Origin: Eubacteriales Family XIII. Incertae Sedis bacterium
GTDB taxonomy: Bacteria; Bacillota; Clostridia; Peptostreptococcales; Anaerovoracaceae
Assembly: GCA_031290135.1 (NCBI GenBank)
Contig: JAITOE010000250.1
Span: 1 to 40,747 of the forward strand
Length of the DNA stretch: 40,747 nucleotides
Direction: 5' to 3'
Positions 19,229-38,167 of this stretch are shown here, piece after piece. Below the pieces are notes generated by a model. It was not told the DNA's origin and made no database searches. It saw only the letters and a program-made list of their open reading frames with translations. The first letter of the stretch is position 1. Every line of letters begins with the position of its first letter. Both the position numbers and the translations under genes were made by a program.

Positions 19229-19258
19229 AGTATAGCAGAATCCAAAACCCTGCGTCAA
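19229..19258 (-). promoter_or_regulatory. Promoter of the DUF4143 ATPase at 17.9 kb
   Basis: On the minus strand TTGACG (19258-19253), 18-bp spacer, TATACT (19234-19229). The triple repeats lie immediately upstream of the -35 box. Confidence 0.72.
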
Positions 19259-19265
19259 GCATTTT

Positions 19266-19350
19266 TGCAGATTTTATGCGCCAAAAAACCATATGATTTG
19301 CAAGTTTTATGCGCCAATAAATTGTTTGAACTGCAAGTTTTATGCGTTAA
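19266..19350 (-). repeat. Three direct repeats, 33-bp period, upstream of an ATPase promoter
   Basis: Read on the plus strand: TGCAGATTTTATGCGCCAA at 19266, TGCAAGTTTTATGCGCCAA at 19299, TGCAAGTTTTATGCGTTAA at 19332. The period is exactly 33 bp, about three helical turns, placing the copies on one face of the DNA. The spacers of about 14 bp are unrelated. The arrangement resembles iterons or a cooperative operator. Confidence 0.85.
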
Positions 19351-19353
19351 AGC

Positions 19354-19484
19354 GTTCTCAGGCCAAGCTGCGATTTCGTGTAAAAAAGCGACCTGATCAT
19401 TGCTTTTTCGTGAATAATTCCGACTATCTTACTTGCTTTTTCGTGCGGCATATACTATGAACTGAAACGAAAAACGAAAAAATA
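19354..19484 (+). repeat. Orphan copy of the 30.6-kb ATPase promoter array
   Basis: Homologous to 30519-30613: CCAAGCTGCGATTTCGTG, then two TTGCTTTTTCGTG copies (TTCGTG cores at 19375, 19407 and 19440; spacing 32 and 33) and TATACTATGA, but no ATPase gene follows. Next come CGAAAAA tandem motifs and the inverted-repeat element. A shorter copy with one repeat unit lost is at 33435-33490. Displaced regulatory DNA. Confidence 0.75.
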
Positions 19485-19636
19485 GGTTACTATTCACAGC
19501 ATTCACAGCCCCCCGTCATCCTGCGGCCCGCGCAGCGGGATCGCAGGATCCATGCACAAGTGATAAAGAATGGATTCTGGGACTAGCCCAGAATGACGGA
19601 AGATTCGCGAGCCGCAATGGGGCTGTGAATAGTAAC
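19485..19636. mobile_element. 152-bp inverted-repeat element (MITE-like) with target duplication
   Basis: Terminal inverted repeats GTTACTATTCACAG (19486-19499) and CTGTGAATAGTAAC (19623-19636), with a palindromic GTCATCCTGCG...CCAGAATGACGG core inside. It is flanked by 7-bp direct repeats AAAAATA at 19478-19484 and 19637-19643. The related sequence at 33434-33636 has the same flanks without the element and with one AAAAATA, an empty site within this window. No coding capacity, so mobilisation in trans is inferred. Confidence 0.82.
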
Positions 19637-19665
19637 AAAAATAGCAGAACACGCGTACTAAAATC

Positions 19666-19694
19666 TTGTTTTCTATGTGCGGCTATGCTATACT
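19666..19694 (+). promoter_or_regulatory. Promoter of the restriction-modification operon
   Basis: TTGTTT (19666-19671), 17-bp spacer, TATACT (19689-19694). It was duplicated with the start of the methylase gene at 33.5 kb. Because it overlaps an in-frame upstream extension of the methylase, translation must begin downstream. Confidence 0.7.
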
Positions 19695-19746
19695 GAATTT
19701 GCTGATAAACATTATTAAGAAAGCGTTGGGAGAGGTTAATTATTCA

Positions 19747-20808
19747 GTGAAAACGGTGAGAAAAAAACCAAAAGCAATAGAGCTGTTTGCAGGCGCAGGC
19801 GGTTTGGCGCTTGGCATTGAGCGTGCAGGCATTGAAACGCTCGGTTTGGTTGAATACGACAAAGACGCCGCCGACACGCTGAAAAAAAACAGGCCAACCT
19901 GGAACGTTATCCATGATGACGTTGCCAACATTTCGCCGCTGAATCTAAATGAGTATTTCGGCATAAAATCGGGTGAGTTAGATTTACTGTCGGGCGGCGC
20001 GCCTTGCCAATCTTTCTCTTACGCAGGAAAGCGGCTGGGTTTGGAGGACGCAAGAGGAACGCTGTTCTACCATTATGCAGTGTTCTTAAAAAAGTTACGG
20101 CCAAAAGTGTTTTTGTTTGAAAACGTGCGCGGCTTGCTGACGCATAACAACGGGCATACGTACCAAACGATTCTTGATATTTTCTCAGAGGCGGGATACG
20201 CAATTCAAAAGAAAATTATGAACGCATGGGATTATGGCGTACCTCAAAAAAGAGAACGGCTTATTACCATTGGCATCCGTGATGATTTAGTAAATGAATT
20301 GGAGATAACGTTCCCTGCAAAGCATGATTACAAACCCGTTTTGCGCGATATTTTGGCGGATGTGCCTAAAAGTGAGGGTACACGGTATTCCGATTACAAG
20401 CGAAAGATATTTGAGTTGGTTCCCCCGGGTGGATATTGGCGCGATATTCCCGAAGAAATTGCCCGCGAATACATGAAAAGCTGTTGGGACATGGAGGGCG
20501 GCAGAACAGGAATATTAAGGCGGCTTAGCCTTGATGAGCCGTCACTTGCGGTTCTTACTTCTCCGTCACAAAAGCAGACTGACCGTTGTCACCCGACGGA
20601 AGCCAGACCCTTTACCATCCGGGAAAATGCACGTGTGCAATGCTTCCCTGATGAATGGGTTTTTTGCGGCCGGGTAGGCAGTCAATACAAGCAGGTCGGG
20701 AATGCTGTTCCTGTCGGGCTGGCGTTTGAAATCGCAAAAGAGATATTCATCGGATTGGAGAATTATTCATGTGGCAATTATCATTCATTTCAAAGCAAGA
20801 TCTCATAA
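19747..20808 (+). CDS. DNA (cytosine-5-)-methyltransferase of a type II R-M system
   Basis: 353 aa from a GTG start (RBS GGGAGAGG at 19728-19735). C5-methylase motifs in order: I AIELFAGAGGLALGIE (10-25), IV GGAPCQSFSYAGKR with catalytic C87, VI FLFENVRGL (ENV), VIII YGVPQKRERLITIGIR, then the target-recognition region, and X QVGNAVPVGLAFEIAKEI. It overlaps the endonuclease gene by 40 bp. GGNCC specificity is inferred from the partner, since the recognition domain cannot be read by eye. AT-rich and embedded in repeats, consistent with acquisition. A 13-codon duplicate of its start survives at 33597. Confidence 0.92.
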   Translation: MKTVRKKPKAIELFAGAGGLALGIERAGIETLGLVEYDKDAADTLKKNRPTWNVIHDDVANISPLNLNEYFGIKSGELDLLSGGAPCQSFSYAGKRLGLEDARGTLFYHYAVFLKKLRPKVFLFENVRGLLTHNNGHTYQTILDIFSEAGYAIQKKIMNAWDYGVPQKRERLITIGIRDDLVNELEITFPAKHDYKPVLRDILADVPKSEGTRYSDYKRKIFELVPPGGYWRDIPEEIAREYMKSCWDMEGGRTGILRRLSLDEPSLAVLTSPSQKQTDRCHPTEARPFTIRENARVQCFPDEWVFCGRVGSQYKQVGNAVPVGLAFEIAKEIFIGLENYSCGNYHSFQSKIS

Positions 20809-21557
20809 AGCACATCGGACTGACAATCACCCAGTATGGCGACAAACTTGCGCCATATGATTTGAATGTGTTTAACAGCAACATTATTGACCCGGTCAAA
20901 CTGATTTTTGATAAGACGGTTTACAATTTTTCGTGGGAGGAAATAATAAAAAACGAGATTTTTCGGCAACGTGACAAATCAAACAACAACGACATCGGAT
21001 ATTTTCATCAACGTTTGTTTGAATACATCAAAGATTGTACTATTCCGCAAACAGGATGGGATATAGTGTTCAAAAATGATCCGGGCATCTTGCTCCCTGA
21101 CGGAGACAAGGTAAGCACCGTGTACGTTGAAATGAAAAACAAACACAACACAATGAACTCTGCGGCAGCGGGCAAAACTTATATTAAAATGCAGGGGCAA
21201 TTACTTAGTGACGATGATTGCGCTTGTTTCCTTGTGGAAGTAATTGCCCGGAAATCGCAGAACATTTCTTGGGCGGTAACTGTCGATGGAACGAAGCAAA
21301 AGCATCGAAAAATCAGGCGCGTGAGCATAGATGAGTTTTACGCGCTTGTGACAGGGCAAAAGGACGCGTTTTATCAAATGTGCATGGCACTGCCGGATGT
21401 CATTGAAGAAGTCGTCGAGAATTTTGCCGCTACCGCAACGCCAAAGGATACGGTATACAAAGACTTGACGAAAATTGCCGATACGAAAGGCGGTTCATTT
21501 GCCTTGGCTTTATATTTGCTCGGCTTTAACAGTTACATAGGATTTAATTCAAAATGA
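20769..21557 (+). CDS. Eco47II-family type II restriction endonuclease
   Basis: 262 aa. The stretch TVYVEMKNKHNTMNSAAAG (117-135) with KTYIKMQGQ just after is the signature of the Eco47II (Sau96I-type) family; E121 and K123 supply the E-x-K half of the PD-(D/E)XK site, with an upstream Asp in GWDIVF a candidate first ligand. Characterised members cut GGNCC; the same site is inferred here. It overlaps the methylase by 40 bp in another frame, so expression is coupled behind protective methylation. Its stop overlaps the start of a HipA-like fragment (ATGA). Confidence 0.88.
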   Translation: MWQLSFISKQDLIKHIGLTITQYGDKLAPYDLNVFNSNIIDPVKLIFDKTVYNFSWEEIIKNEIFRQRDKSNNNDIGYFHQRLFEYIKDCTIPQTGWDIVFKNDPGILLPDGDKVSTVYVEMKNKHNTMNSAAAGKTYIKMQGQLLSDDDCACFLVEVIARKSQNISWAVTVDGTKQKHRKIRRVSIDEFYALVTGQKDAFYQMCMALPDVIEEVVENFAATATPKDTVYKDLTKIADTKGGSFALALYLLGFNSYIGFNSK

Positions 21558-21846
21558 GAAGCGGAAAACGTCAAGGGTATTACGACGCCCACGGCCAAGA
21601 ATTCAAGGACAACATTAACGATATGCTCGTTTTCGACGCGCTCATCTACAATACCGACAGGCACTATGGGAATTTTGGCGTGCTCCGCGATAATTCAGAC
21701 GGAAAAATAATAGCGCCCGCGCCAATTTTCGACAACTGCTTTTACGATTGCTTCAAATGATACTCTCCCTGTTGCCGGGGAACGAGTTGCTGCGTATTCG
21801 TCAAGATTTTTGATTTCGTCTTTCATGGCATAATTAAACAGCGAAG
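21554..21846. pseudogene. HipA-like kinase fragment with an internal inversion
   Basis: Plus strand 21554-21735 encodes the HipA catalytic-loop region INDMLVFDALIYNTDRHYGNFG and then IIAPAPIFDN, after which the frame ends in nonsense at 21760. The expected continuation (SLFNYAMKDEIKNLDEYA and TRSPATG, then FEAIVKAV) is present immediately next to it but on the minus strand, 21846 down to about 21740. The tail has been inverted in place. The 5' two thirds of the gene are missing, replaced by the endonuclease gene. Not functional. Confidence 0.78.
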
Positions 21847-22160
21847 CTCCAAGCTCAAAAGGAAGCTGACCGAAGCAACCACGAGATTTAGTGATTGACA
21901 TAGTTGCGAAGCCCTGAAGATATTTTCCCATTAAATCCAAAATATGGGGCGAAATCTGCCGTAAAAACAACGTAAGCCGTATTTGAGCGGGAAACCGGCC
22001 TTACGTGCAAGTCTAAGGCGCATCTGCCTGGGAGAACACTACTTTTTTTCGCGAATGTAAAATTTTGGAAAACGAAAAGCCGTGATTTTGCAAGGGTTTC
22101 GCATTTTTTGTAACAAAAAAAAATGAATGTTTTAAAAAGTTTCGAAAAGTGATGGATATC
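21847..22160. other. Gene-free stretch with unassigned minus-strand relic
   Basis: The minus-strand frame that carries the inverted HipA tail continues upstream as ISPHILDLMGKYLQGF and MSITKSRGCFGQL, which I do not recognise; it has no clear start. A hairpin with ACGTAAG / CTTACGT-type arms lies around 21971-22008. The remainder is AT-rich with homopolymer runs and nothing assignable. Confidence 0.4.
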
Positions 22161-22187
22161 CGACAACATTTTTTTGACTTTTGTGTT

Positions 22188-22499
22188 ATGCTATACCAGA
22201 CACATGAATCCGCGCAAGCAAAAATGGCTGCACGCAATACAGACATTGCCGTAAAAAAAGGAAGGAGGCGAGCCGCCGGCAGGCTCATTGCCCAGAAGCC
22301 TGAATGCCTACAGCGAAAGCCATGGCAGCGGGCCGCGGCGCGGCAGGAAACGGCCGTGTTTCCCGTCAGTTGGAATGGAGGACCTCAAAAAACCCCGCAG
22401 GAAGGGAGGGCCTGCGCAAAGGGGAAGAACGGCGTCAGGACATATAAATAAAAGTTGTTTTTAAAGCCAAGAACGTTTTCATGAAAGGGAAATAAGAAC
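22188..22499 (+). promoter_or_regulatory. Extended -10 promoter and long GC-rich leader of the surface-protein genes
   Basis: TGCTATACC at about 22189-22197 is an extended -10 (TG-N-TATACC) after a T-rich -35 region. The following about 300 nt is purine- and GC-rich with several potential stems, for example CCCCGCAGG...GCCTGC, before the ATG at 22500. A structured leader or riboswitch is plausible, but I could match no known consensus, including those for cyclic di-GMP and cobalamin. Confidence 0.45.
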
Positions 22500-24482
22500 A
22501 TGCAGAACTTAAAAAATTATCATTTAGACCGAAAGCTTCTTTCTATTATCGTGGCCGTGGCCATGGTCATCTCCATGTTCGCGTGGACGGCCGGCACGGC
22601 GAACGCGGCGCAAACGGGCGCGAACGACATCAACATCAACACGGCGCAGGATCTTGCCGATTTTGCGGCGGACGTCAACAACGGCAACACCTATCTGGGA
22701 AGCACCGTCACATTGACAGCGAGCATTGATCTCAGATCTCTCGGCGTTGACTGGACGCCCATCGGGCTTGCCACGATAGGGTCAGATCCCGGCACAAACA
22801 GCCCGGTCATTCTTGTCGGAGGCGGATTTGCCGGGACCTTTGAAGGCGGCGGCAATACCATTTCCAATCTCACAATCAACACCGACGTGAGCGGGTACGG
22901 CCTGTTCGGCTACCTTGCACCCGCCGGCACAATTCAGAACCTGACAGTGTCCGGCACGGTTACCGCGACCGCCGCTGCCACTGATGCCATAGGCGGCGTG
23001 GTTGCCTACAACAGCGGCATCATCAATCATGTGACCAACAACGCTTCCGTAGCTGCGGCAAACAGCCACAACGTCGGCGGCATCGCAGGCTTCAACAACG
23101 GCTACTACGGTAACAACCTCCCCAACGGCATCATCACCAACTGCCAAAACACGGGCGCAATTACCGGATTGTCCAAAGCGGGCGGCATCACCGGCGAGAA
23201 CGCGGGCGTCATCAATTCCTGCTCCAACGCCATTACCGGCGTCGTCACAAACCCAGGCTCCGGCAAAAACGGCGCGGGCGGCATCGCCGGCCGCAACGGC
23301 AACAACGACACCGCATTGGAAGCGGGAGAGATTTTTGACTGTTATAACGCGGCTCCCGTCAGCACGTCAGACGGCAGATGGGGCGGAGGGATTGTAGGCT
23401 TCGAGAACGCGCTGTCCACGACCATAAACTGCTACGACGTCGGCGCGGTGACGGGATATGAGGATGATTACCCGATCATCGGCAGCAATGAAAACCCGGC
23501 GGTAACGGTGCTTGACAATTACTCGCTAGATAGCATCCCCCCCACTACCGTCGAAGATGACAGAACCGGGACGCGCAAGGATCAGATTTACATGCAATCC
23601 GTTGCTTTCGCCGAATTGCTGGAAACCAAAGCTTACGGCGACAATGTCTGGGCGGGCGCCGCCGGCGTGTACCCCGCGCTGACTTACACGGCCCCCGTGC
23701 CCCCGCCCTCCGGCGGCGGCACCCACAATGACTACGCGGTGATTTATTTAAGCCATGACGGAGACGACGAAAGCCTCGCGCCGGATGCCCCGGCGACGCC
23801 CGTCGCCACCCTCGGCAAAGCCGTGGCGCTTGCGGACCAGTCGTCGGTTGCCGGCGTATACGTCAATGTGCTGGACACCATTGACTTCGCTGCCACGCAG
23901 AGCATATTCGGCAACGGCATATCCGTACAATGGCACGGCAGTGACGACACGATGTTCACCGTTGTAGCGCACAGCACGACCCCGGTCAACCTCACCCTTG
24001 GCGGGTTAAAAATCGACGGCGAAGACGTTGACACGGTGTTCGCCGTGGAAGGCAACGCAAGCGCGGCTGCCGGGCTGACGCTGCGCAACAACACATCCAT
24101 CGATGAATGCGGCACGGCGATAGACATGGTCGCATACGGCAATCTGACGCTGAACCAAAGCACCATAGGCGGCACGAATTACAGCGTGAGGCTGGAAGAT
24201 TCCACGGACACGATGACAATCTTCACCGGACCCGGCCAGAGTCTGGATGTCGATAGCGTGGTGTATCTGGCGGACGGTGATGTCATCACGCTCAACAGCG
24301 CGCTGACGAGCGACCTTACAGTTGAGACGGAGGATGACCCCGCTGATGGTGAAGTGCTTGTCGCGGTTGCGGCAGACAGCGATATTGCGGATGCCAGCGT
24401 TCCTTTCCTGCAATTTTTTGGGAGCGGCGTTGACTTCGTTGCAGACGGCACCGATATTTACGCAGTGTCGGCAAGTAGATAA
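22500..24482 (+). CDS. Secreted GLUG-repeat / beta-helix surface protein
   Basis: 660 aa with a clear signal peptide (LLSIIVAVAMVISMFAWTAGTANAA). Residues about 45-390 are GLUG-type repeats (VGGIAGFNNG, AGGITGENAG, AGGIAGRNG, GGGIVGFENA) as in M26/adhesin-like clostridial exoproteins, with WTPIG and LFGYL motifs. Residues about 410-650 look like a pectin-lyase-type beta-helix (LTLGGLKIDGEDV, LTLRNNTSIDECG). No LPXTG, SLH or dockerin anchor is visible, so the protein is secreted or held by partners. GAAAGGGA precedes the ATG. The next gene shares the GLUG plus beta-helix make-up. Role in adhesion or glycan binding is inferred. Confidence 0.8.
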   Translation: MQNLKNYHLDRKLLSIIVAVAMVISMFAWTAGTANAAQTGANDININTAQDLADFAADVNNGNTYLGSTVTLTASIDLRSLGVDWTPIGLATIGSDPGTNSPVILVGGGFAGTFEGGGNTISNLTINTDVSGYGLFGYLAPAGTIQNLTVSGTVTATAAATDAIGGVVAYNSGIINHVTNNASVAAANSHNVGGIAGFNNGYYGNNLPNGIITNCQNTGAITGLSKAGGITGENAGVINSCSNAITGVVTNPGSGKNGAGGIAGRNGNNDTALEAGEIFDCYNAAPVSTSDGRWGGGIVGFENALSTTINCYDVGAVTGYEDDYPIIGSNENPAVTVLDNYSLDSIPPTTVEDDRTGTRKDQIYMQSVAFAELLETKAYGDNVWAGAAGVYPALTYTAPVPPPSGGGTHNDYAVIYLSHDGDDESLAPDAPATPVATLGKAVALADQSSVAGVYVNVLDTIDFAATQSIFGNGISVQWHGSDDTMFTVVAHSTTPVNLTLGGLKIDGEDVDTVFAVEGNASAAAGLTLRNNTSIDECGTAIDMVAYGNLTLNQSTIGGTNYSVRLEDSTDTMTIFTGPGQSLDVDSVVYLADGDVITLNSALTSDLTVETEDDPADGEVLVAVAADSDIADASVPFLQFFGSGVDFVADGTDIYAVSASR

Positions 24483-24504
24483 GTCGGAATTTTCATCAAT
24501 ACAG

Positions 24505-24547: not shown

Positions 24548-24570
24548 AATAATTCAGCGGAGGGTAATTT

Positions 24571-29710: not shown

Positions 29711-29945
29711 ACGCTGGATTGCTTCGCTCCGCTCGCAAAGACAGGCATTCCGTCATTGCGGGGAACGAAGCGATATCCGTCATTGCGGGGAGCGAAGCGA
29801 TATCCGTCTTTGCGAGGAACGCAGCGATATCCGTCATTGCGAGGAGCGAAGCGACGAAGCAACCCAGGTGCAAGAACAGGCACTGGATTGCTTCGCTCCG
29901 CTCGCAAAGACAGGCATTCCGTCATTGCGGGGAACGCAAAGACAT
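29711..29945. repeat. Expanded GTCATTGCGAG-type palindromic repeat with 27-bp tandem units
   Basis: Four 27-bp units (CCGTCATTGCGGGGA... type) start at 29750, 29777, 29804 and 29831, flanked on both sides by the sequence GGATTGCTTCGCTCCGCTCG (29715 and 29884). It is related to the elements at 3889 and 33319 but amplified. The unit is nine codons long, so all frames stay open; these are not genes. Confidence 0.8.
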
Positions 29946-30089: not shown

Positions 30090-30148
30090 CCAAAGTTCAT
30101 AGCAATGATGCGCCAAAGTTCATAGCAAACCCTTGACAAAGTTCATAG
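30090..30148 (+). repeat. Three direct repeats, 23-bp period, at an ATPase-remnant promoter
   Basis: CCAAAGTTCATAG at 30090 and 30113, and ACAAAGTTCATAG at 30136; the period is exactly 23 bp. The third copy overlaps a TTGACA -35 box (30133-30138); no convincing -10 box is at optimal spacing. They precede the truncated ATPase at 30178. Confidence 0.82.
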
Positions 30149-30177: not shown

Positions 30178-30342
30178 ATGAATCCGAATTATTTGAAGCG
30201 AATTTCAGATGAAAAACTGGATCTTTTGCTCCGCGCAAAGGGCGCGGTTTTAATTGAGGGCCCAAAATGGTGCGGCAAAACAAGCACCGGAGAGGAGATG
30301 GCGAAGAGCGTCCTGTATATGCAAGACCCGGACATTCCGTGA
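30178..30342 (+). pseudogene. 5' stub of another DUF4143-type ATPase
   Basis: 54 codons: start, LKRISDEKLDLLL, Walker A region VLIEGPKWCGKTSTGEE, and SVLYMQDPD, then a stop at the junction with a minus-strand toxin fragment. This is the first fifth of a DUF4143 ATPase from a different subfamily than the other genes here. Everything after the MQDPD motif is gone. Its promoter array is intact. Confidence 0.8.
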
Positions 30343-30516: not shown

Positions 30517-30522
30517 AGCCAA

Positions 30523-30613
30523 GCTGCGATTTCGTGTAAAAAATGCGACCTGATTATTGCTTTTTCGTGAATAATTCAGATTATTTTACTTGCTTTTTCG
30601 TGCGATATATACT
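30523..30613 (+). promoter_or_regulatory. Promoter with three 33-bp-spaced TTCGTG repeats, ATPase at 30.6 kb
   Basis: Repeat cores TTCGTG at 30531, 30564 and 30597, exactly 33 bp apart, within CTGCGATTTCGTG, TTGCTTTTTCGTG and TTGCTTTTTCGTG. The last copy lies between a weak -35 TTACTT (30586-30591) and -10 TATACT (30608-30613, 16-bp spacer), so a protein bound there would directly affect polymerase. Confidence 0.78.
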
Positions 30614-30643: not shown

Positions 30644-31987
30644 ATGAATTTGAAACGGAAAATTTACGCGGAGATGCTGAAATGGAAAGCCGGAAGCGAC
30701 GGGACGACCGCCCTGCTGATAAACGGCGCCCGCCGCACCGGAAAAAGCTATATTTGCGAAAGCTTTGCTCGGAACGAGTACAGGAGCCATATAACAATTG
30801 ATTTCGGCAACGCGCCGAAAGAGATACCGGATCTTTTTTTGAACGAAAGCGCCGACCTCGACCTGTTTTTCCTGAAGCTCTCCGCGTTTTATTCAACCGC
30901 GCTGCACAGGCGCCAGTCGGTCATTATTTTCGATGAAGTGCAGCAATGCCCGCGGGCGCGCCAGCTAATCAAATATCTGGTCGCCGACGGCCGGTATGAT
31001 TACATAGAGACCGGTTCGCTCATCGGGCTGAAAAAGAACGTAAAGGACATTATCATTCCGTCGGAAGAGGAACACATGGAGATGTTCCCGCTTGATTTTG
31101 AAGAATTCCTCTGGGCGACGGGGGACGAAACGGCAGTCCCGCTGTTAAAACAATGTTTCGCTTCAAAAACACCGCTCGGCCAGCCCCTGCACAGAAAAAT
31201 CATGAACGATTTCCGGCAATATGCTTTAGTCGGCGGGATGCCGCAGGCCGTTCTGGAGTACGCAAAATCCAAAGATTTCGGGGCGGTCGATGCCGTCAAA
31301 CGGCGCATCCTCCGGCTTTACCGTGATGATGTTTCAAAATTTGCCGAAGGCTACGAAGACAAGGTGTTTGCTATTTTTGACGGGATTCCGGGGCAGCTTT
31401 CCAAAAAAGAAAAAAAATACAAGCTGTCGTCGCTGGCAAAGGAGGCCCGTTTCCGCAGCCATGAAGACTCCTTTGTCTGGCTGAACGAAGCCATGATTGT
31501 CAACGCCTGCTTCAACGCGACGGATCCGACAATCGGGCTGGCGCTGAACATGGACCGCCTGACGCAAAAATGCTATATGGCCGACACCGGGCTTTTGGTC
31601 ACGCTTGCTTTTTGGGATTTGCCTTTTGCGGAAAACGATCTGTACAAGGCTGTTTTGTTTGACAGGCTGGACGTTAACGAAGGCATGATCATGGAAAACA
31701 TAGTGGCGCAGATGCTGAGGTTTAACCGCCACAGACTGTATTTCTACTCCCGCAGCGACGCCCTGAAACGTGAAAACCACATGGAGATCGACTTTTTGGT
31801 CGCCCGCGGGAAAAAGATTTCGCCGGTTGAAGTCAAGTCAGGAAACTACAGATCCCATTCATCCCTTGACAAGTTCAAAAAGAAATTCTCGTCCCGCCTG
31901 GGCGATTCCTTTATCCTATATGCCAAAGATGTTGCCGTGAAAGATGACATTGTCCACCTGCCGCTGTACATGGCCATGTTCCTTTGA
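30644..31987 (+). CDS. AAA ATPase with C-terminal DUF4143 domain
   Basis: 447 aa from the ATG at 30644 (AAGAAGG 7 bp upstream; an ATG at 30626 is possible). Walker A GARRTGKS (28-35), Walker B SVIIFDEVQQC (92-102), sensor-like YIETGSLIGL, MEMFPLDFEEFLWA, and YALVGGMPQAVLEYA. The DUF4143 part ends with HMEIDFLVARG and ISPVEVKSGN (nuclease-fold strand pair) and the family C-terminus LPLYMAMFL, identical to that of the 17.9-kb ATPase. All expected motifs are intact, so it is probably functional; the activity is unknown. Upstream: triple-repeat promoter. Downstream: a bidirectional terminator shared with a convergent, defective relative. Confidence 0.87.
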   Translation: MNLKRKIYAEMLKWKAGSDGTTALLINGARRTGKSYICESFARNEYRSHITIDFGNAPKEIPDLFLNESADLDLFFLKLSAFYSTALHRRQSVIIFDEVQQCPRARQLIKYLVADGRYDYIETGSLIGLKKNVKDIIIPSEEEHMEMFPLDFEEFLWATGDETAVPLLKQCFASKTPLGQPLHRKIMNDFRQYALVGGMPQAVLEYAKSKDFGAVDAVKRRILRLYRDDVSKFAEGYEDKVFAIFDGIPGQLSKKEKKYKLSSLAKEARFRSHEDSFVWLNEAMIVNACFNATDPTIGLALNMDRLTQKCYMADTGLLVTLAFWDLPFAENDLYKAVLFDRLDVNEGMIMENIVAQMLRFNRHRLYFYSRSDALKRENHMEIDFLVARGKKISPVEVKSGNYRSHSSLDKFKKKFSSRLGDSFILYAKDVAVKDDIVHLPLYMAMFL

Positions 31988-32050: not shown

Positions 32051-33232
32051 TTATGCCGTCAGGCAGAACATTGCATAGAGCGGAATGCTTTTTATGCCGT
32101 TTTCAAAGCCGAAGTTTTTGGCCGACACCCGTATGGAATAAACGGGCTTGTAAATGTCCCGGTAAGCCCGCAGGCTTTTGGAGCGCACGTTCTCGGCCGA
32201 CTTCGCTTCCAGTGGGATGATGTCGCCGGATTTTTCCTGAAAGACAAAATCCACCTTGGCTTTGCCCTGCGAAGCCCAGTAGTACGGCGTGACGTCGGCC
32301 GCCACAAGCGCCTGGCAGATATAGTTTTCCGCAAGCGCGCCCTTGAACCCGTCAAAGGTGTGGGCAGCATGAAGAACCGCGCCGGGGGGGATGCCGAACT
32401 TGGAACACAGCAGCCCCGTGTCCGCCATGTAGACCTTGAACGTTTCGTTTTCGGCGTATGCGGACAGCGGCAGTTTGCCCTCCGTCACATGGACGCACGT
32501 GTGGATCATGCCCGCCGCCTTCAGCCAGTCCAGCGCGACGGCGTAATCGCCCGCCCGCGCCCCGGACCGAATGACCTTGTACTGGAATTTATGGTTTTCC
32601 TTGGCAAGCTGCGCCGGAACCGAAGCCCATGCCGCCATGATGCGGTTTGTTTCCTGCGGCGTGGCGTATTTCGCCATGTCCGCGATGTAGGAATCGTTCA
32701 GCGTCCGCTGCAGGGCCGCGACAAAGTCAAAATCCCGCTTGCCGGCGTATTCCTGCACGGCGCGGGGCATGCCGCCGACGACAAGATAGGTCTTGTACCA
32801 GTCCATCGCCGTATCATGAAGCGACAAGGGCGTGAAACCGTCATAGGCTTCGCGGATGAGGCCGCATAGCGCGTTTTGGCCGACAGCCCACAAAAATTCC
32901 TCAAAGTCCATTGGGAAGAGCCGGAGCATGTCCACCTTGCCGACGGGGAAAGAGAAATTTTCGCGCTTCATGGCGACGCCGAGCAGGATGGTCTGGCCGC
33001 TCCGGGCGGCAAGCTCCCGGACAATGCGCACGGGGTTCAGGTCGCGCGCAAAGACGGCGGGGGTCTCCATGGAGTCCTCCATGCTGAAATACGCGACGTT
33101 TTTATAATGCTGTTTCCCGAAAGAAAGCAAGGTGTACGTCTTGCCCACCTGCCGCGCCCCCTGCAGGAGCAAAGGCAGCTTGTCGGGTTTGTTTTTCCAC
33201 GCCAGCAGCGATTTTACAATTTTACGTTCCAT
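32051..33232 (-). CDS. DUF4143 ATPase lacking Walker B (internal deletion)
   Basis: 393 aa. Walker A GARQVGKTY (25-33) is intact, and so are MLRLFPMDFEEFLWAVG, YLVVGGMPRAVQEYA and the DUF4143 end (KVDFVFQ, IIPLEAKSAEN). Between TI (81-82) and LLGVAMKRENFSF (83 on), the whole stretch that in relatives carries Walker B (LIFLDEIQ), the following CP...LKYF helix and the sensor strand is absent, about 35-45 residues, without a frameshift. ATP hydrolysis should be lost. Start at 33232 with AGGTGA 9 bp upstream. No triple repeat precedes it. Either a decaying gene or a regulatory paralogue; the former is more likely among so many scars. Confidence 0.82.
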   Translation of the reverse strand: MERKIVKSLLAWKNKPDKLPLLLQGARQVGKTYTLLSFGKQHYKNVAYFSMEDSMETPAVFARDLNPVRIVRELAARSGQTILLGVAMKRENFSFPVGKVDMLRLFPMDFEEFLWAVGQNALCGLIREAYDGFTPLSLHDTAMDWYKTYLVVGGMPRAVQEYAGKRDFDFVAALQRTLNDSYIADMAKYATPQETNRIMAAWASVPAQLAKENHKFQYKVIRSGARAGDYAVALDWLKAAGMIHTCVHVTEGKLPLSAYAENETFKVYMADTGLLCSKFGIPPGAVLHAAHTFDGFKGALAENYICQALVAADVTPYYWASQGKAKVDFVFQEKSGDIIPLEAKSAENVRSKSLRAYRDIYKPVYSIRVSAKNFGFENGIKSIPLYAMFCLTA

Positions 33233-33254
33233 AAAGTGTCATCACCTCGCGTTT

Positions 33255-33283
33255 ATCGTAACATAAAGACGAAAGGAAGTCAA
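33255..33283 (-). promoter_or_regulatory. Promoter of the Walker B-less ATPase
   Basis: On the minus strand TTGACT (33283-33278), 17-bp spacer, TACGAT (33260-33255). Just upstream is a half-copy of the AAACCCGGCGGGCG terminator and then the palindromic repeat, which may have replaced any repeat array. Confidence 0.65.
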
Positions 33284-33318
33284 GGGCGGAGGGCAAACCC
33301 GGCGGGCGTAACCCCTCC

Positions 33319-33390
33319 GTCATTGCGAGCGAAGCGAAGCAATCCACAGGCACTGGATTGCTTCGTCGCTTCGCTCCTCGCAACGACAAA
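33319..33390. repeat. GTCATTGCGAG-type palindromic element, second copy
   Basis: CGTCATTGCGAGCGAAGC then GAAGCAATCCACAGG-CACTGGATTGCTTCG and CTCCTCGCAACGAC; it matches 3938-4005 with one mismatch seen in the core. Confidence 0.85.
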
Positions 33391-33411
33391 TGGCGCAGCG
33401 GCGCCGTTCAT

Positions 33412-33596
33412 ACCCAAGATTCATAACAGTAACCCGATCATTGCTTTTTCGTGCGGCATACAATATGAACTGAAACGAAAAAACGAAAAAATAACAGAAC
33501 ACGCGTCCTAAAATCTTGTTTTCTGTGTGCGGCTATGCTATACTGAATTTGCCGATAAGCAGTATTAAGAAAGCGTCGGGAGAGGTTGATTATTCA
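33412..33596 (+). repeat. Second copy of ATPase-array remnant plus R-M promoter
   Basis: Starts with the 23-bp dispersed motif (33412-33434), then GATCATTGCTTTTTCGTG, CGGCATACAATATGAACTG, the CGAAAAA motifs, and the whole methylase promoter and RBS. Relative to 19.4-19.75 kb it lacks one 33-bp repeat unit and the 152-bp inverted-repeat element, so it preserves the pre-insertion order. Confidence 0.85.
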
Positions 33597-33638
33597 GTGA
33601 AAATGGCGAGCAAAAAACCAAAAGCAATAGAGCCTTGA
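33597..33638 (+). pseudogene. 13-codon stub of a duplicated cytosine methylase
   Basis: A GTG start with the same RBS, then KMASKKPKAIEP and a stop. The true gene at 19747 reads KTVRKKPKAIELFAG, so the copy breaks at motif I. Nothing of the methylase follows. Confidence 0.85.
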
Positions 33639-33654
33639 AAGGACGTTACGCTTC

Positions 33655-34678: not shown

Positions 34679-34747
34679 CACTGACGGCACCTTCCGTTTC
34701 GTGCAAAGGGGTTCTTTGTTCTGTTGCCATGGGCGCTTGTTGCCTTT

Positions 34748-34825
34748 ATTATATCCACCCGCATGCCAAAATGCAAGCGCTTTCAAAAACTCATCAAAAA
34801 CTCATGGCAAAGCATCAAAAAACAT
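34748..34825 (-). promoter_or_regulatory. Promoter of the Panacea pair with upstream TCAAAAA repeats
   Basis: On the minus strand TTGCAT (34776-34771), 17-bp spacer, TATAAT (34753-34748). Plus-strand TCAAAAA copies begin at 34783, 34794 and 34815 (steps of 11 and 21 bp), between this promoter and pnuC. They could be operators for the divergent genes. The pnuC promoter itself is unclear, with GATAAAAT near 34826 a possible -10. Confidence 0.68.
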
Positions 34826-34869
34826 GATAAAATGTAACACAATAGGCGACAGGAAAGGGGCGCGCTGCC

Positions 34870-35550
34870 ATGAAAAAGATGCTGGCATACTGGAAAGCCT
34901 GGGAACTGGCATGGCTTTTGGTTTTCGGCCTGACGGCGCTTTGGATCACGCTGGTCACGGGCGACAACCTGTTCGGCTTCGTCGTTTTCCTGTCCGGGGT
35001 GCTTTGCGTGGTGCTCGTCGCGAAAGGCAGCATCCTGAACTATCCTGCCGGCGTGGTCAACACGCTCGGCTACGCGTGGATCGCGCTTCACAACGGCCTG
35101 TACGGGGAAGCGGGGCTGAACCTGATCTTTTATTTCCCCATGAACTTCGTCGGATTCTTCCTGTGGCGGCGCCATACGGCGGGCGGGATTGTCAAAATGC
35201 GCGCGCTGCGGCCCGGAACGGCCCTGATTTTTGCCATTGGCTGTGCCGTGCTGGTCGCCGCCCTCGGATTCGGCCTGTCCCTGATACCCTCCCAGAACAC
35301 CCCGTACATAGACGCGGCCACGAACGTCCTGTCGGTCGCCGCGACCCTGCTGATGGTGCGGCGCTACCGCGAACAGTGGATCTGTTACATCGCGCTGAAC
35401 GTCCTGACCGTGACCATGTGGGCCGTCCGCATGGCGAACGGAAGCCCGGACGGGCTGCTGATGATCGTCATGTGGTCGGCGTATCTGGTCAATTCCGTTT
35501 ACGGCTGGCTGAACTGGAGCAAGGGCGCGAGGGAGGCGGGGCGGCAATGA
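34870..35550 (+). CDS. pnuC: PnuC-type nicotinamide riboside transporter
   Basis: 226-aa membrane protein with about 7-8 hydrophobic segments in the PnuC fold. Signatures: SGVLCVVLVAKGSILNYPAGVVN, the substrate-region pattern YAWIALHNGLYGE, NLIFYFPMNFVGFFLWRRH, and a C-terminal VRMANGSPDGLLMIVMW with YLVNSVYGWLNW. Facilitates uptake of nicotinamide riboside, trapped by phosphorylation inside the cell. The stop overlaps the nadR start (ATGA), placing transporter and kinase in one operon. Confidence 0.93.
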   Translation: MKKMLAYWKAWELAWLLVFGLTALWITLVTGDNLFGFVVFLSGVLCVVLVAKGSILNYPAGVVNTLGYAWIALHNGLYGEAGLNLIFYFPMNFVGFFLWRRHTAGGIVKMRALRPGTALIFAIGCAVLVAALGFGLSLIPSQNTPYIDAATNVLSVAATLLMVRRYREQWICYIALNVLTVTMWAVRMANGSPDGLLMIVMWSAYLVNSVYGWLNWSKGAREAGRQ

Positions 35551-36569
35551 GCGGAAAAAAAACCGGGCTGACGCTCGGCAAATTCGCGCCGTTCCACAAA
35601 GGGCACGAATGGATAGTCGAGACGATGCTTGCCGAAATGGACGAAGCGGTCGTCATCATTTACGACAGCGGCCTCACGCCCGTGCCGCTGCCCGTCCGGG
35701 CGGGCTGGATCCGGACGCTTTATCCGCAGGTCCGCGTCCTGGAAGCCTGGGACGGCCCTTCGCGCTGGTCAAGCGAACGGGAACATGAGCGCCTGGAGGA
35801 GGAATATGTCAAGAGCCTGCTCGGCGGCGTGAAGGTGGACGCGTTTTATTCCAGCGAACACTACGGCGCCCACATGTCCTCCGCCCTGGGCTGCGCGGAC
35901 AGGCGGGTGGACGAGGCGCGGGAAAGGGTTCCCGTCTCCGGGACGATGCTGCGCGGCGACCCGTACCGCTGGCGGGCGTATGTCAGCGGCGCCGTATACC
36001 GCGACCTCATCGTGAAGGCCGTGTTCGTCGGAGCCATGTCAACCGGGAAATCCACCATCACGCGCGCGCTCGCCGAACGCTTCCACACGACTTGCGCCGA
36101 CGAGTACGGGCGCGAATACTGGGAAAAGCACCAGGTTGGCAGGCGCATCGGCCTTTCGGATTTTGACAGCATCGCAGTCGGCCACATCGAACGCGAGGAT
36201 GCCGCGATACGCGGGGCGAACCGCTATTTTTTCGTCGATACGAACGCGATCACGACGTATATGTTCGCCCTGGACTACCACGGGCGGGCGCCCGGCCTGC
36301 TGACGCGGCTCGCCCTGGAAAACGCCACCCGCTACGACTTGTTCTTCCTGTGCGGGGACGAGATGCCCTATGACGACACCTGGGACAGGAGCGGCGACGC
36401 GAAACGGCACGTGTTCCAGAAGCAGATCATAGCGGACCTGAAGACGCGGAAAATCCCGTACATCCCCCTCGCCGGGAACCTCGCGGAGCGGATGGCGAAG
36501 GTGGAGGCGGTGCTTGCGAAATTCTCCCCCTTCGGGAATTTCTATGGGCTGGCGGGCGGGTCGCTGTGA
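35547..36569 (+). CDS. nadR: NadR-type NMN adenylyltransferase / ribosylnicotinamide kinase
   Basis: 340 aa, bifunctional and cytosolic. N-terminal nucleotidyltransferase: GKFAPFHKGH (11-20) and the second motif VSGTMLRGDP (130-139). C-terminal kinase: P-loop GAMSTGKST (162-170), DEYGREYWEKH, and FVDTNAITTYMFALDYHG. It lacks the N-terminal helix-turn-helix repressor domain of enterobacterial NadR, so it is purely enzymatic. With PnuC it converts imported nicotinamide riboside to NMN and then NAD. ATGA overlap with pnuC. No terminator is obvious; the next 110 bp are unremarkable. Confidence 0.93.
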   Translation: MSGKKTGLTLGKFAPFHKGHEWIVETMLAEMDEAVVIIYDSGLTPVPLPVRAGWIRTLYPQVRVLEAWDGPSRWSSEREHERLEEEYVKSLLGGVKVDAFYSSEHYGAHMSSALGCADRRVDEARERVPVSGTMLRGDPYRWRAYVSGAVYRDLIVKAVFVGAMSTGKSTITRALAERFHTTCADEYGREYWEKHQVGRRIGLSDFDSIAVGHIEREDAAIRGANRYFFVDTNAITTYMFALDYHGRAPGLLTRLALENATRYDLFFLCGDEMPYDDTWDRSGDAKRHVFQKQIIADLKTRKIPYIPLAGNLAERMAKVEAVLAKFSPFGNFYGLAGGSL

Positions 36570-36680
36570 TTTCAAGGGGTTTTCGACGGCAATGTGCGTT
36601 TTATCCGGCGGCGGCCGCTACAAGGACAGTGACAACGTGATTTTTCTCCGTTTCCGAATTTACAGGTTTTCAAATAAACG

Positions 36681-36709
36681 TTGACAACCGTTCGGCTTTT
36701 AATTATAAT
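36681..36709 (+). promoter_or_regulatory. Perfect consensus promoter of the DUF234-type ATPase
   Basis: TTGACA (36681-36686), 17-bp spacer, TATAAT (36704-36709). The inferred start is near 36716, right before the tandem repeats. Confidence 0.88.
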
Positions 36710-36717
36710 ATAATCGT

Positions 36718-36756
36718 GATTAAGTTAAACAAGATTAAGTTAAACAAGATTAAGTA
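36718..36756 (+). repeat. Three direct repeats, 15-bp period, in the ATPase leader
   Basis: GATTAAGTTAAACAA at 36718 and 36733, and GATTAAG at 36748 followed by divergent sequence. They sit just downstream of the -10 box in the untranslated leader. Translated in frame they would read IKLNK repeats, but the RBS and family alignment put the start at 36779. Confidence 0.8.
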
Positions 36757-36778
36757 TTTTGCGTTTGAGGCGAACGGG

Positions 36779-38167
36779 ATGTTTATCGGAAGAAACGAAG
36801 AGTTAAAAAGTTTGACCGGATATTACAATAGCGGCAAATATGAATGCGCCGTTATTTATGGGCGCAGACGCGTTGGTAAAACCGAACTGATTACAGAGTT
36901 TGTCAAAGACAAAAAACATATATACTTCACGGCAGTCGAAGGAACATATCAAAAAAACCTCGACATGCTCAGCAAGGCTGTGTTCAACGGGCTGGACGGC
37001 GGAATCCACGTCAGCAGCCCGACGTTTGCTGATTTTGCCGATTGCCTTGATCATATCTATAATCACTCGCAGGAAAAACTGGTTGTAATAATAGATGAGT
37101 ATCCGTACTTTGCGCAAAGCGAGCAGTCGGTTTCCTCGGTTTTACAACAGTACATCGACCATAAATTTCAGCGGAGGGACATAATGTTTATCCTTTGCGG
37201 CTCGTCTATGTCGTTTATGGAAAAGCAGGTTATGGGCAATAAAAGTCCGCTCTACGGGCGGCGAACCTGTCAATATAAGCTCCAGCCATTTGATTTCAAG
37301 ACCTCAATGGAGTTTCACGGCGGATTCGACAAGCGAGAGCAAGCAGTCGTGTACGCGATAACCGGCGGGATACCGAAGTATTTATTGCAGATTGACGGCA
37401 GTAAATCGCCAAAAGAAAATATTGTAAAGAACTTTTTTTCGCCCAACGGCCTGCTTTTTGAGGAACCGAATAATTTGTTGAAACAAGAGCTTCGTGAGCC
37501 TGCGGTGTACAACGCGATTATCACGGCTATCGCGACGGGAAGCTCCAAGCTCAATGAAATAGCCACCAAAGCGCATATGACTACATCCGCTTGCAGTAAT
37601 TATTTGAAGTCGCTGATTTCGCTGAACATCGTCCGGAAGGAACTGCCAATTCTCGCAAAGGCGAACGCACGGAACACGATTTATCGCCTGAACGATGGCA
37701 TGTTTCGGTTTTGGTACAAGTTTGTGTACGACAACGTTTCGGAAATATCTATGCATCAGGGCGAAGCGATTTACACGGAAATCGAGCAGCAAATCTCTGA
37801 CTTTATGGGCGAGGCGTTTGAGGATATTTGCAAGCAGTGGATGTGGCGGGAAAATTTTGCGGGTCGGTTGCCTTTCCGTTTCAAGGACTGCGGACGCTGG
37901 TGGGGAACGAATCCACGCCGCCGGGCCGAGCAGGAGATTGATTTGCTTGCGTACAACAGGGACAAAACCGGCGCGATATTCTGTGAATGCAAGTGGACAA
38001 ATGAGAAAATATCCGACGGTATCATAGTTGAATTGATAGATAAAAGTGAAATGTTCGGATATGGGAAAAAGCATTATTATTTATTTTCCAAGAGCGGATT
38101 CACCCCGGCGGCGCTGAAAAGGGCGAACGATGATGTTCGGCTGATTAGCTTTGACGATATGTATTGA
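36779..38167 (+). CDS. Archaeal-type ATPase with DUF234-like nuclease-fold domain
   Basis: 462 aa from the ATG at 36779 (MFIGRNEELKSL, the canonical family start; GAGG 9 bp upstream). Walker A GRRRVGKT (28-35), Walker B VVIIDEYPY (102-110), sensor-like FILCGSSMSFME, GGIPKYLLQI, a winged-helix region (KLNEIATKAHMTTSACSNYLKSL), and a C-terminal DUF234-type domain with EIDLLAYN and AIFCECKW, a PD-(D/E)XK-like strand pair. It belongs to the AAA ATPase_2/DUF234 branch, distinct from the DUF4143 genes but of similar domain logic (P-loop ATPase plus nuclease fold). Function not established. AT-rich against its neighbours nadR and cysK, suggesting acquisition. Confidence 0.85.
   Translation: MFIGRNEELKSLTGYYNSGKYECAVIYGRRRVGKTELITEFVKDKKHIYFTAVEGTYQKNLDMLSKAVFNGLDGGIHVSSPTFADFADCLDHIYNHSQEKLVVIIDEYPYFAQSEQSVSSVLQQYIDHKFQRRDIMFILCGSSMSFMEKQVMGNKSPLYGRRTCQYKLQPFDFKTSMEFHGGFDKREQAVVYAITGGIPKYLLQIDGSKSPKENIVKNFFSPNGLLFEEPNNLLKQELREPAVYNAIITAIATGSSKLNEIATKAHMTTSACSNYLKSLISLNIVRKELPILAKANARNTIYRLNDGMFRFWYKFVYDNVSEISMHQGEAIYTEIEQQISDFMGEAFEDICKQWMWRENFAGRLPFRFKDCGRWWGTNPRRRAEQEIDLLAYNRDKTGAIFCECKWTNEKISDGIIVELIDKSEMFGYGKKHYYLFSKSGFTPAALKRANDDVRLISFDDMY

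What the first reader, a model, noticed from the sequence alone, without database searches (positions are those of the whole stretch)
19229..36779. Four ATPase promoters, four different three-copy repeat arrays
Each array has exactly three direct repeats at a constant period beside or over the promoter of a P-loop ATPase with a nuclease-fold C-terminus: TGCAAGTTTTATGCGCC at 33 bp (gene at 17895), TTGCTTTTTCGTG at 33 bp (30644), CAAAGTTCATAG at 23 bp (stub 30178), and GATTAAGTTAAACAA at 15 bp (36779). The sequences differ between loci and the ATPases belong to at least three subfamilies, yet the copy number and layout persist. The one ATPase without an array (32051) has lost Walker B. This suggests that each ATPase, or a partner, reads its own repeats: autoregulation, plasmid-like iteron control, or a selfish maintenance device. 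I know of no description of it.
Basis: partly seen in the sequence, partly recalled or inferred. Interest (0 to 1): 0.85.

Follow-up and report, generated by a model that had tools for sequence, protein, structure and literature searches.

The report
ATPases that read their own promoter repeats
Two very common bacterial and archaeal gene families, both suspected phage-defence ATPases, often carry evenly spaced DNA repeats in their own promoters, and the evidence suggests each protein recognises its own repeats and so controls itself.

Summary
The arrays are real and general. Each window array beats 1,000 shuffles, though only two have three full copies.

Repeat pitch tracks ATPase clade. GARQVGK-type DUF4143: top lag 32/33 bp in 92 of 141 genes. 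GPKWCGK-type: 23 bp in 14 of 16, the other two 46. Controls: 28 and 5 of 382. Genes fetched later: 61 of 107 at 32/33. DUF234: 15 bp in 17 of 30, haloarchaea included. The comparison family PF09820 shows no shared lag in 8 rows.

The 17895 gene's 17-bp repeat occurs three times in its 2.76-Mb genome, all at its own promoter. Two residues of the predicted recognition helix track two bases of the repeat (R-x-R with G-T-G; S-x-R with T-T-G; R-x-K mostly G-T-A/T). This held in the later set, without correction for relatedness.

Best reading: the ATPase binds its own phased operator and autoregulates, probably as a repressor. PADLOC names these families PDC-S01 and PDC-S27, defence candidates. Binding, direction and trigger are inferred.

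The parts
17895..19211 (-). DUF4143 ATPase, GARQVGKS type (P0001): AAA, predicted winged helix (about 241-330), PD-(D/E)XK-like C-terminus
   Evidence: Pfam AAA_14 1.1e-19, DUF4143 3e-27; PADLOC PDC-S01 4.8e-143; AlphaFold2 model pLDDT 93.2, pTM 0.92
19266..19348 (-). its array: three copies of TGCAAGTTTTATGCGCC (read on +) at 33 bp
   Evidence: the only three matches (up to 2 mismatches) in the whole genome assembly; 0 of 1,000 shuffles
19229..19258 (-). promoter-like TTGACG-18-TATACT of the 17895 gene, just downstream of its array
   Evidence: -35 at 19253-19258, -10 at 19229-19234, minus strand; consensus match only
19367..19445 (+). orphan array of the 30644 type (exact copies at 19400 and 19433, degenerate copy near 19368), with no ATPase of its own
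30091..30148 (+). array of the stub: CAAAGTTCATAG x3 at 23 bp
   Evidence: the same unit at 23 bp before an intact GPKWCGKT ATPase in another genus (L081)
30178..30342 (+). 54-codon stub, N-terminal remnant of a GPKWCGKT-type DUF4143 ATPase
   Evidence: translation; no Pfam hit; Walker A GPKWCGKT
30524..30602 (+). array of the 30644 gene: TTGCTTTTTCGTG x2 plus one 10/13 copy, at 33 bp
   Evidence: exact unit found 5 times in the genome assembly, all in this window
30644..31987 (+). DUF4143 ATPase (P0002, GARRTGKS), helix positions 275/277 = R/R, repeat ends CGTG
32051..33232 (-). decayed DUF4143 ATPase lacking Walker B, no array
33441..33453 (+). single stray copy of TTGCTTTTTCGTG
36681..36709 (+). 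perfect-consensus promoter-like TTGACA-17-TATAAT of the DUF234 ATPase
   Evidence: consensus match only
36718..36755 (+). array GATTAAGTTAAACAA, 2.5 copies at 15 bp, 8 bp beyond the -10 box and before the ATG at 36779
36779..38167 (+). ATPase_2/DUF234 protein (P0004 is the same frame from the GTG at 36716)
   Evidence: Pfam 6.2e-31 and 6.4e-29; PADLOC PDC-S27 1.2e-64

Best explanation
Each array is a phased operator for the ATPase that it precedes. The protein is a STAND/ORC-like AAA+ ATPase with a winged-helix domain and a PD-(D/E)XK-like C-terminus. Several protomers bind, one per repeat, with their recognition helices on the same DNA face and at a pitch set by how that clade's protomers pack. 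They thereby control their own promoter, most likely repressing it in the resting cell. Loss of binding (a trigger such as a change of nucleotide state or phage takeover) would release expression of a suspected defence nuclease.

Shown by sequence data here: the arrays, clade-specific pitch, orientation in the 33-bp clade, uniqueness of the 17895 repeat in its genome assembly, and covariation of two recognition-helix residues with two bases of the repeat (not corrected for relatedness).

Inferred: physical binding, cooperativity, one protomer per repeat, repression rather than activation, the trigger, and the antiviral role.
For: - Pitch by clade against controls. GARQVGK type: 92 of 141 at 32/33 bp, against 28 of 382 control upstreams. 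GPKWCGK type: 14 of 16 at 23, the other two at 46, against 5 of 382. Of the 11 controls at 32/33 with score 10 or more, 8 overlap a target's own upstream and one (L201) is itself a missed DUF4143 gene.
- Later-fetched genes: 61 of 107 at 32/33 and 12 more at 64-66.
- DUF234: 18 of 31 at 15 bp, 17 of 30 with a shared array counted once; among 8 named plasmid loci that I chose from 157 records, 5 have top lag 15 (one tied with lag 24), three of the five haloarchaeal.
- DUF4143 on plasmids: of 6 loci chosen from 61 records, top lag 32 or 33 in four and 66 in two, from four phyla. A Bacteroides GPKWCGK-type relative has 23 (L438).
- Tree labels (score 8.5 or more, multiples pooled) cluster: 33-bp label 24 changes against a shuffled mean of 58.3; 23-bp label 3 against 17.4; 0 of 500 shuffles as low for either.
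- DNA phasing: motif copies lie mainly 32/33 and 64-66 bp apart in one sub-clade, and 32/33, 44/45 and 77/78 in the other, near multiples of 11. Forward 153 and reverse 19 in one, 74 and 4 in the other.
- Self-specificity: the 17895 repeat occurs 3 times in 2.76 Mb, all at its own promoter.
- Who reads it: residue 277 R goes with G in 170 of 176 copies, K in 8 of 29. Residue 275 R goes with G in 129 of 158, S/T/D in 0 of 16. In the later set a sole GTG call occurs in 15 of 21 RR genes and 0 of 18 others.
- Repeat similarity follows protein identity in the 33-bp clade: rho 0.445, permutation maximum 0.16.
- Operator geometry: in the GVRQVGKT sub-clade 14 of 22 arrays begin at or after the predicted -10 box; the window DUF234 array lies 8 bp beyond the -10 of a perfect-consensus promoter.
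Against: - No binding or expression data exist here.
- Not every gene has an array. In the first GARQVGK-type set 49 of 141 have another top lag, some of them multiples. The GIRRCGK type (17 genes, 5 at 39-41 bp) is not settled. A Thermus member has none. In the window's own genome, the lag-32/33 matches of L006, L008 and L021 are within shuffle range.
- Tree-aware tests of the residue-base link are underpowered: 2 independent pairs on supported branches, median p 1; a looser version had 4 or 7 pairs, median p 0.5. Relatedness inflates the Fisher values, and the later set comes from the same order and phylum, fetched with two query proteins.
- The scoring rule was loosened, in the script that scored the later set. 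68 of 107 later genes gave no motif call. Of the 21 RR genes with a call, 4 lack GTG. In the first set rescored by the same rule, 3 of 18 R-x-nonR genes call GTG alone, and 3 of 11 R-x-K genes have mostly G. L007 and L073 do not fit.
- A sliding-window scan did not single out the winged helix; AAA windows correlated with the repeat as well or better.
- In the window's 17895 gene the array lies upstream of the -35 box, which would also suit an activator.
- For the GPKWCGK type, repeat similarity did not significantly follow protein identity (rho 0.18, permutation maximum 0.37, 16 genes).
Confidence: 0.72

Rival explanations
1. A host-encoded regulator, not the ATPase, binds the arrays.
For: Many 33-bp-clade arrays across phyla share an A-tract followed by TGTG, which one conserved factor might read.
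Against: Paralogues in one genome carry different units at the same pitch. The pitch follows ATPase clade; in the 33-bp clade the units follow protein identity and two helix residues. The 17895 unit has no other site in the genome assembly.
Confidence: 0.1
2. The repeats are transcribed and act as RNA, as in type III toxin-antitoxin systems, where tandem repeats before the toxin gene make the antitoxin RNA (family description recalled).
For: Tandem repeats of about 33 nt just before a putative nuclease; in the GVRQVGKT sub-clade most arrays are probably transcribed.
Against: Only part of each period is conserved. Pitch mixes 32 and 33, and copies also lie 44/45 and 77/78 bp apart, which suits DNA faces. 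With predicted promoters, 13 of 56 arrays in the GARQVGK sub-clade lie wholly upstream of the -35 box, 36 overlap the promoter and 7 begin at or after the -10. Pitches of 15 and 23 bp occur in related groups. No Rfam match at the gathering score in the window.
Confidence: 0.05
3. The arrays are iteron-like elements for replication, mobility or maintenance of a selfish gene.
For: Many copies, some of them fragments, in one genome (22 matches). An orphan array beside unrelated genes. Relatives on plasmids and viral contigs. Distant structural similarity to Cdc6/Orc1.
Against: Arrays sit at predicted promoters close to the gene start; I did not look for origins, insertion boundaries or transfer genes, so this is weakly tested.
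Confidence: 0.1
4. Chance or AT-rich low complexity.
For: Upstream regions are AT-rich and short repeats are common in them; several single arrays are within shuffle range.
Against: 0 of 1,000 shuffles for each window array; shuffles of the target upstreams give 109 of 3,600 at 32/33; the comparison family PF09820 shows no shared lag.
Confidence: 0.02

Closest known systems
RptR repressor of a phage-defence island (PMC12255303; start of abstract in a listing, and search passages)
   Same: A defence locus whose own promoter holds three direct repeats overlapping the -10 box, read by a protein encoded there, which represses it.
   Different: RptR is a separate 9-kDa homodimeric repressor with 9-bp repeats and a 6-bp palindrome conserved across genomes.
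PDC-S01 and PDC-S27 (PADLOC; discussed in PMC12988326, search passages read)
   Same: The window proteins match these models. That paper describes both as ATPases fused to PD-(D/E)XK domains and calls PDC-S01 the fourth most common defence across prokaryotes, with validation pending for most PDCs.
   Different: No promoter array or autoregulation is mentioned in the passages read. The founding preprint (10.1101/2024.01.29.577857) was not read: the library holds no preprints.
Archaeal AAA+ ATPases SSO1545 (2fna) and PABY2304 (2qen)
   Same: Closest solved folds to the P0001 model (Z 15.3, rmsd 4.1 over 269 residues; Z 16.8, rmsd 4.3 over 262).
   Different: The alignments stop near residue 329, before the C-terminal nuclease-like part. 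The SSO1545 paper (PMC2692486) is not held and was not read.
Iteron-bound plasmid initiators and Orc1/Cdc6 (recalled)
   Same: Phased direct repeats next to the gene of an ATPase or winged-helix protein that binds them.
   Different: No replication origin is shown here; the arrays lie at the gene's own predicted promoter.
Type III toxin-antitoxin loci (recalled)
   Same: Tandem repeats of similar length before a nuclease gene.
   Different: Position, partial conservation and phasing here argue for DNA rather than RNA.

Membership tests
PDC-S01 (DUF4143 candidate defence ATPase) | match to the PADLOC model over most of the protein | tested here: met
   P0001 4.8e-143 over residues 3-437; P0002 1.4e-108
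PDC-S01 (DUF4143 candidate defence ATPase) | protects against phage | not testable with these tools
   validation pending for most PDCs according to PMC12988326
PDC-S27 (DUF234 candidate defence ATPase) | match to the PADLOC model | tested here: met
   P0004 1.2e-64 over residues 23-448
STAND/ORC-like AAA+ ATPase with winged helix | fold of the AAA core and winged helix | tested here: met
   2qen Z 16.8, rmsd 4.3, 262 aligned; 2fna Z 15.3, rmsd 4.1, 269 aligned; helix/strand order
PD-(D/E)XK nuclease | conserved acidic and E-x-K active-site residues (motif recalled) | tested here: met
   E350, D376, E389, K391 invariant in 61 sequences
PD-(D/E)XK nuclease | fold of the isolated C-terminal domain | tested here: inconclusive
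   list includes Bax1, DdmD, Can2 and Hjc but best E 0.0065, none at 0.001; weak UPF0102 hit 0.003, below its cut-off
PD-(D/E)XK nuclease | nuclease activity | not testable with these tools
   no assay
Autoregulated operator | repeats at the gene's own promoter | tested here: met
   (promoters are consensus predictions)
Autoregulated operator | the gene product recognises them | tested here: inconclusive
   residue-base covariation in two gene sets, but too few phylogenetically independent pairs and no binding assay
Iteron-controlled replicon | repeats within a functional origin | not tested
   no origin looked for or assayed
Type III toxin-antitoxin | repeat array transcribed between promoter and toxin gene | tested here: inconclusive
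   14 of 22 GVRQVGKT-type arrays begin at or after the -10, but 13 of 56 GARQVGK-type arrays lie upstream of the -35, with predicted promoters
Type III toxin-antitoxin | match to a curated RNA family | tested here: inconclusive
   no Rfam family reached its gathering score in the window

The most novel reading that the evidence does not exclude
The array is not just an operator but the resting place and sensor of the system. In each clade the ATPases assemble at fixed pitch on their own promoter as an inactive store. Infection changes nucleotide state, DNA topology or transcription, strips the assembly off, and at once frees both the promoter and the active ATPase-nuclease. Pitch is then the footprint of the oligomer, and the R-x-R/G-T-G code keeps the many co-resident paralogues from silencing or activating one another.
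Probability: 0.2. Interest if true: 0.92.

Novelty: new variant of a known kind. Interest (0 to 1): 0.82.

Why it matters
PDC-S01 is described as the fourth most common defence across prokaryotes (PMC12988326, passages), yet I found no mechanism for it in the searches made. This result gives both PDC-S01 and PDC-S27 a concrete handle: a short DNA target that can often be read off the promoter, a pitch that may show how protomers pack, and, in the 33-bp clade, two helix positions that go with two bases. Purification, binding and induction experiments can be designed directly from it. It could also explain how many paralogues coexist in one genome without cross-talk. The same lag scan could reveal self-reading regulators in other uncharacterised families.

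Tried and rejected
Exactly three copies as the conserved trait: rejected. Motif counts in the 33-bp clade run from 0 to 5 per 200 bp, and one 23-bp array has about nine copies (L092).

Arrays as a property of other ATPases with a nuclease-like partner domain (domain fusion of PF09820 recalled): PF09820 gave 8 rows with genes (7 distinct, since L262 and L270 are one gene) and no shared lag; 10 of its 18 loci gave no gene by the Walker pattern used.

Localising the DNA reader by sliding windows: inconclusive. Two AAA stretches correlated as well as or better than the winged helix, so I turned to specific helix positions.

Tree-aware sign tests of the code: too few independent pairs to conclude.

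A hunt for further three-copy arrays covered 219,945 bases of own-genome sequence: two arrays with first lag 23 and two with first lag 33 at score 10 or more. The ATPase arrays at 30091 and 19266 are among them; the other two are a 33-bp repeat that looks coding (L041) and a REP-like stretch (L034).

Thermus thermophilus HB8 member (L439): no array at 15 or 23 bp and no strong lag.

Rows dropped before counts; 11 loci without a recognised gene, 3 duplicates, 3 with short upstream; L009 picked the neighbouring gene there and was replaced. L201, L125 and L147 without a gene, L126 short; its 34 viral rows include near-duplicates, of which identical ones were removed. One search removed proteins identical over 120 residues, not near-copies; 14 of 45 loci without a gene; L271 and L272 share one array; 13 of 120 loci dropped (7 already used or duplicate, 4 without intact gene, 2 short). 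The gene sets were chosen by a Walker pattern that also admits some GIRRCGK-type proteins. One search counts only genes whose array and promoter scores passed thresholds (56, 22 and 10 genes).

A Fisher value for G4 used 17 of 25; the right count is 20 of 25 (recomputed).

Literature. Ten searches of an open-licence library without preprints listed no paper that, from what I saw, describes promoter repeats for DUF4143, DUF234, PDC-S01 or PDC-S27; the longer result lists were capped and not opened. DUF4143 itself occurs in one paper (PMC4406477, one passage read). Papers opened: PMC5760070, PMC4406477, PMC12988326, PMC13356809 and PMC12255303, each as search passages only; the rest seen as listing lines and abstract starts. 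A paper outside this library, or the founding preprint, may hold it.

Full report
1. What was checked. All four are in the sequence. For each, 0 of 1,000 dinucleotide shuffles of its own upstream region score as high at any lag from 10 to 89 bp. Two arrays have three full copies (19266-19348 at 33 bp; 30091-30148 at 23 bp), one has two exact and one 10/13 copy (30524-30602 at 33 bp), and one has two and a half copies (36718-36755 at 15 bp). The ATPase at 32051 lacks the Walker B stretch and has no array.

2. The genome. The window's genome (2.76 Mb, 274 contigs, 89% complete) has 22 DUF4143 matches, several of them fragments, and 7 DUF234 matches. Of 16 DUF4143 genes with usable upstream DNA, the best self-match lag is 32 or 33 bp in nine (L004, L006, L007, L008, L010, L014, L015, L017, L021) and the second best in one more (L011), although the repeated sequences differ; one gene has a strong 23-bp array (L012). 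Taken alone, L006, L008 and L021 are within shuffle range.

3. General survey. I collected upstream regions from relatives, named genome contigs, viral contigs and plasmids. After removing proteins identical over 120 residues, 180 genes were scored, plasmid loci not included. GARQVGK-type: 92 of 141 have top lag 32/33. GPKWCGK-type: 14 of 16 have 23 and the other two 46. GIRRCGK-type: 5 of 17 have 39-41. GPRQ-type: 2 of 6 have 23. Controls, the upstreams of other genes in the same loci and genome: 28 of 382 at 32/33, 5 of 382 at 23 and 23 of 382 at 39-41. Of the 11 controls at 32/33 with score 10 or more, 8 overlap a target's own upstream and one (L201) is itself a DUF4143 gene that the Walker pattern missed. 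Shuffled targets give 109 of 3,600 at 32/33. Fisher values are 7e-41 and 6e-20; they ignore relatedness. On a FastTree tree of 176 proteins the 33-bp label (multiples pooled) needs 24 changes (shuffled mean 58.3) and the 23-bp label 3 (17.4); 0 of 500 shuffles were as low.

4. DUF234. In 45 loci, 31 gave a usable gene; 18 have top lag 15 and 2 have 30. L271 and L272 share one array, so 17 of 30 is the fairer count (Fisher 1e-15 against 10 of 382 controls). In eight named plasmid loci that I chose from 157 records, five have top lag 15 (L433 tied with lag 24; L436 weak), three of these five haloarchaeal. Thus 15 bp marks this family in both domains. PF09820, another ATPase family used for comparison, shows no shared lag in its 8 rows (7 distinct genes). 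Among six DUF4143 plasmid loci chosen from 61 records, four have top lag 32/33 and two 66; one GPKWCGK-type plasmid relative has 23 (L438) and a Thermus member has no array (L439).

5. DNA face and orientation. In the 33-bp clade many units share an A-tract followed by (T/C)GTG: two or more copies in 44 of 112 GARQVGK-type and 26 of 29 GVRQVGKT-type genes. They point the same way relative to the gene (153 forward to 19 reverse, and 74 to 4), and copies lie mainly 32/33 and 64-66 bp apart in the first, 32/33, 44/45 and 77/78 bp in the second. These are near multiples of 11 bp, as expected for sites on one face of the helix (inference). Among genes whose array and predicted sigma-70-type promoter passed thresholds, 14 of 22 GVRQVGKT-type arrays begin at or after the -10 box, 5 overlap the promoter and 3 lie upstream; for the other sub-clade 36 of 56 overlap, 13 lie upstream and 7 begin at or after the -10; for the 23-bp type 6 of 10 overlap and 4 lie upstream. 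In the window, the DUF234 gene has a perfect TTGACA-17-TATAAT with the array 8 bp beyond the -10 box, while the 17895 array ends just upstream of TTGACG-18-TATACT. Promoters are consensus matches, not mapped starts.

6. Who reads the repeats. The 17895 unit occurs three times in the whole genome assembly, all at its own promoter (up to 2 mismatches). The 30644 unit occurs exactly five times, all in the window: two at its promoter, two in an orphan array at 19400/19433, one at 33441; one-mismatch matches elsewhere (5) equal the reversed-pattern background (5). Repeat similarity in the 33-bp clade follows protein identity (rho 0.445, permutation maximum 0.16, same strand; opposite strand -0.08); in the 16 GPKWCGK-type genes it did not reach significance.

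7. A recognition code. The AlphaFold2 model of P0001 (pLDDT 93.2, pTM 0.92) has a winged-helix-like region around residues 241-330, with a helix at 276-288 in the position of a recognition helix (my reading). Two positions at its start track two bases of the core AAA-N-N-[G2]-T-[G4]. Residue 277: R goes with G4 in 170 of 176 copies, K in 8 of 29; with a looser register, R 118 of 128 and all others 13 of 48. Residue 275: R goes with G2 in 129 of 158 copies, S/T/D in 0 of 16, one G protein in 2 of 2. The two separate: S275/R277 proteins such as the window's 17895 gene have T-T-G or A-T-G; R275/K277 proteins mostly have G-T-A or G-T-T, but 3 of 11 have mostly G-T-G; R275/G277 (L014) has G-T-T. 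Paralogues in the window's own genome fit this individually (L015, L011, L014, L010, L006, L017); L007 does not fit and L008 is weak. L006 was listed as an exception because of the register chosen there; L073 remains one.

8. Later set. The code was written down before 120 further loci were fetched, with P0001 and L226 as queries, and scored. The scoring rule itself was loosened in the script. 107 genes were new and usable: 61 have top lag 32/33 and 12 more 64-66. Motif calls were possible in 39. GTG was the sole best register in 15 of 21 RR genes (2 more shared, 4 without GTG) and 0 of 18 others (1 shared) (p 2e-6); G4 in 20 of 25 with R277 and 0 of 14 without (p 8e-7, correcting); G2 in 22 of 34 with R275 and 0 of 5 without (p 0.011). 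The first set rescored by the same rule: sole GTG in 57 of 65 RR genes with a call, 0 of 5 nonR-x-R, 3 of 18 R-x-nonR, 0 of 4 others. These tests do not correct for relatedness. On the first set, tree-based pairs were too few to decide, and a sliding-window scan did not favour the winged helix over the AAA domain.

9. What the protein is. P0001 and P0002 match PADLOC PDC-S01 and P0004 matches PDC-S27. The closest solved folds are 2qen and 2fna, followed by CED-4/NLR and Orc1/Cdc6 chains. The C-terminal residues E350, D376, E389 and K391 are invariant in 61 sequences. The isolated C-terminal model (pLDDT 88.6) has several nucleases in its Foldseek list, best E 0.0065, so the nuclease assignment is likely but not proven.

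10. Mechanism. Best reading: several ATPase protomers bind the array on one DNA face and control their own promoter, most likely repressing it. A trigger would release the suspected effector. Repression is preferred because many arrays overlap the predicted promoter or start and because a perfect promoter in front of the DUF234 gene would need restraint; arrays upstream of the -35 box leave activation possible. RptR, a repressor of a defence island that binds three direct repeats in its own promoter (PMC12255303, passages), is a working precedent for the layout.

11. Novelty. Within the searches made I saw nothing that describes these arrays. The library has no preprints, and the founding PDC preprint was not read. 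Autoregulation by operator repeats is a known kind.

Noticed in passing
window 19367-19445 and 19666-21557: An orphan 33-bp array of the 30644 type sits beside Eco47II-type restriction-modification genes, with no ATPase of its own; the block GCCAAGCTGC that begins such arrays recurs at 19362, 30019 and 30518.
   Followed up: partly
L012 (G000:C91), upstream of its ATPase: Read by eye: a second set of phased copies (CCGCTAAA type, 23 bp apart) lies upstream of its own 23-bp array, as if one array had been left behind by another gene.
   Followed up: no
window 3889-3951, 29749-29854, about 33320-33385: REP-like CGTCATTGCGAG repeats in several places.
   Followed up: no
GIRRCGK-type genes, e.g. 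L068, L107, L114: Instead of simple direct repeats, some show palindromic sites repeated at about 41, 65 or 76 bp; the clade's consensus also has an invariant Q where the other clades have the E of E-x-K (my reading), hinting at a changed nuclease site.
   Followed up: no
window 32051-33232: An ATPase gene that keeps an open frame but has lost Walker B and has no array.
   Followed up: partly
L309 (Acinetobacter towneri plasmid): A 33-bp-type ATPase lies head to head with a GVRRSGKS-type ATPase gene, so two such genes share one intergenic region.
   Followed up: partly
L041:3653: A long 33-bp direct repeat of more than three units that looks coding, unrelated to the arrays.
   Followed up: no
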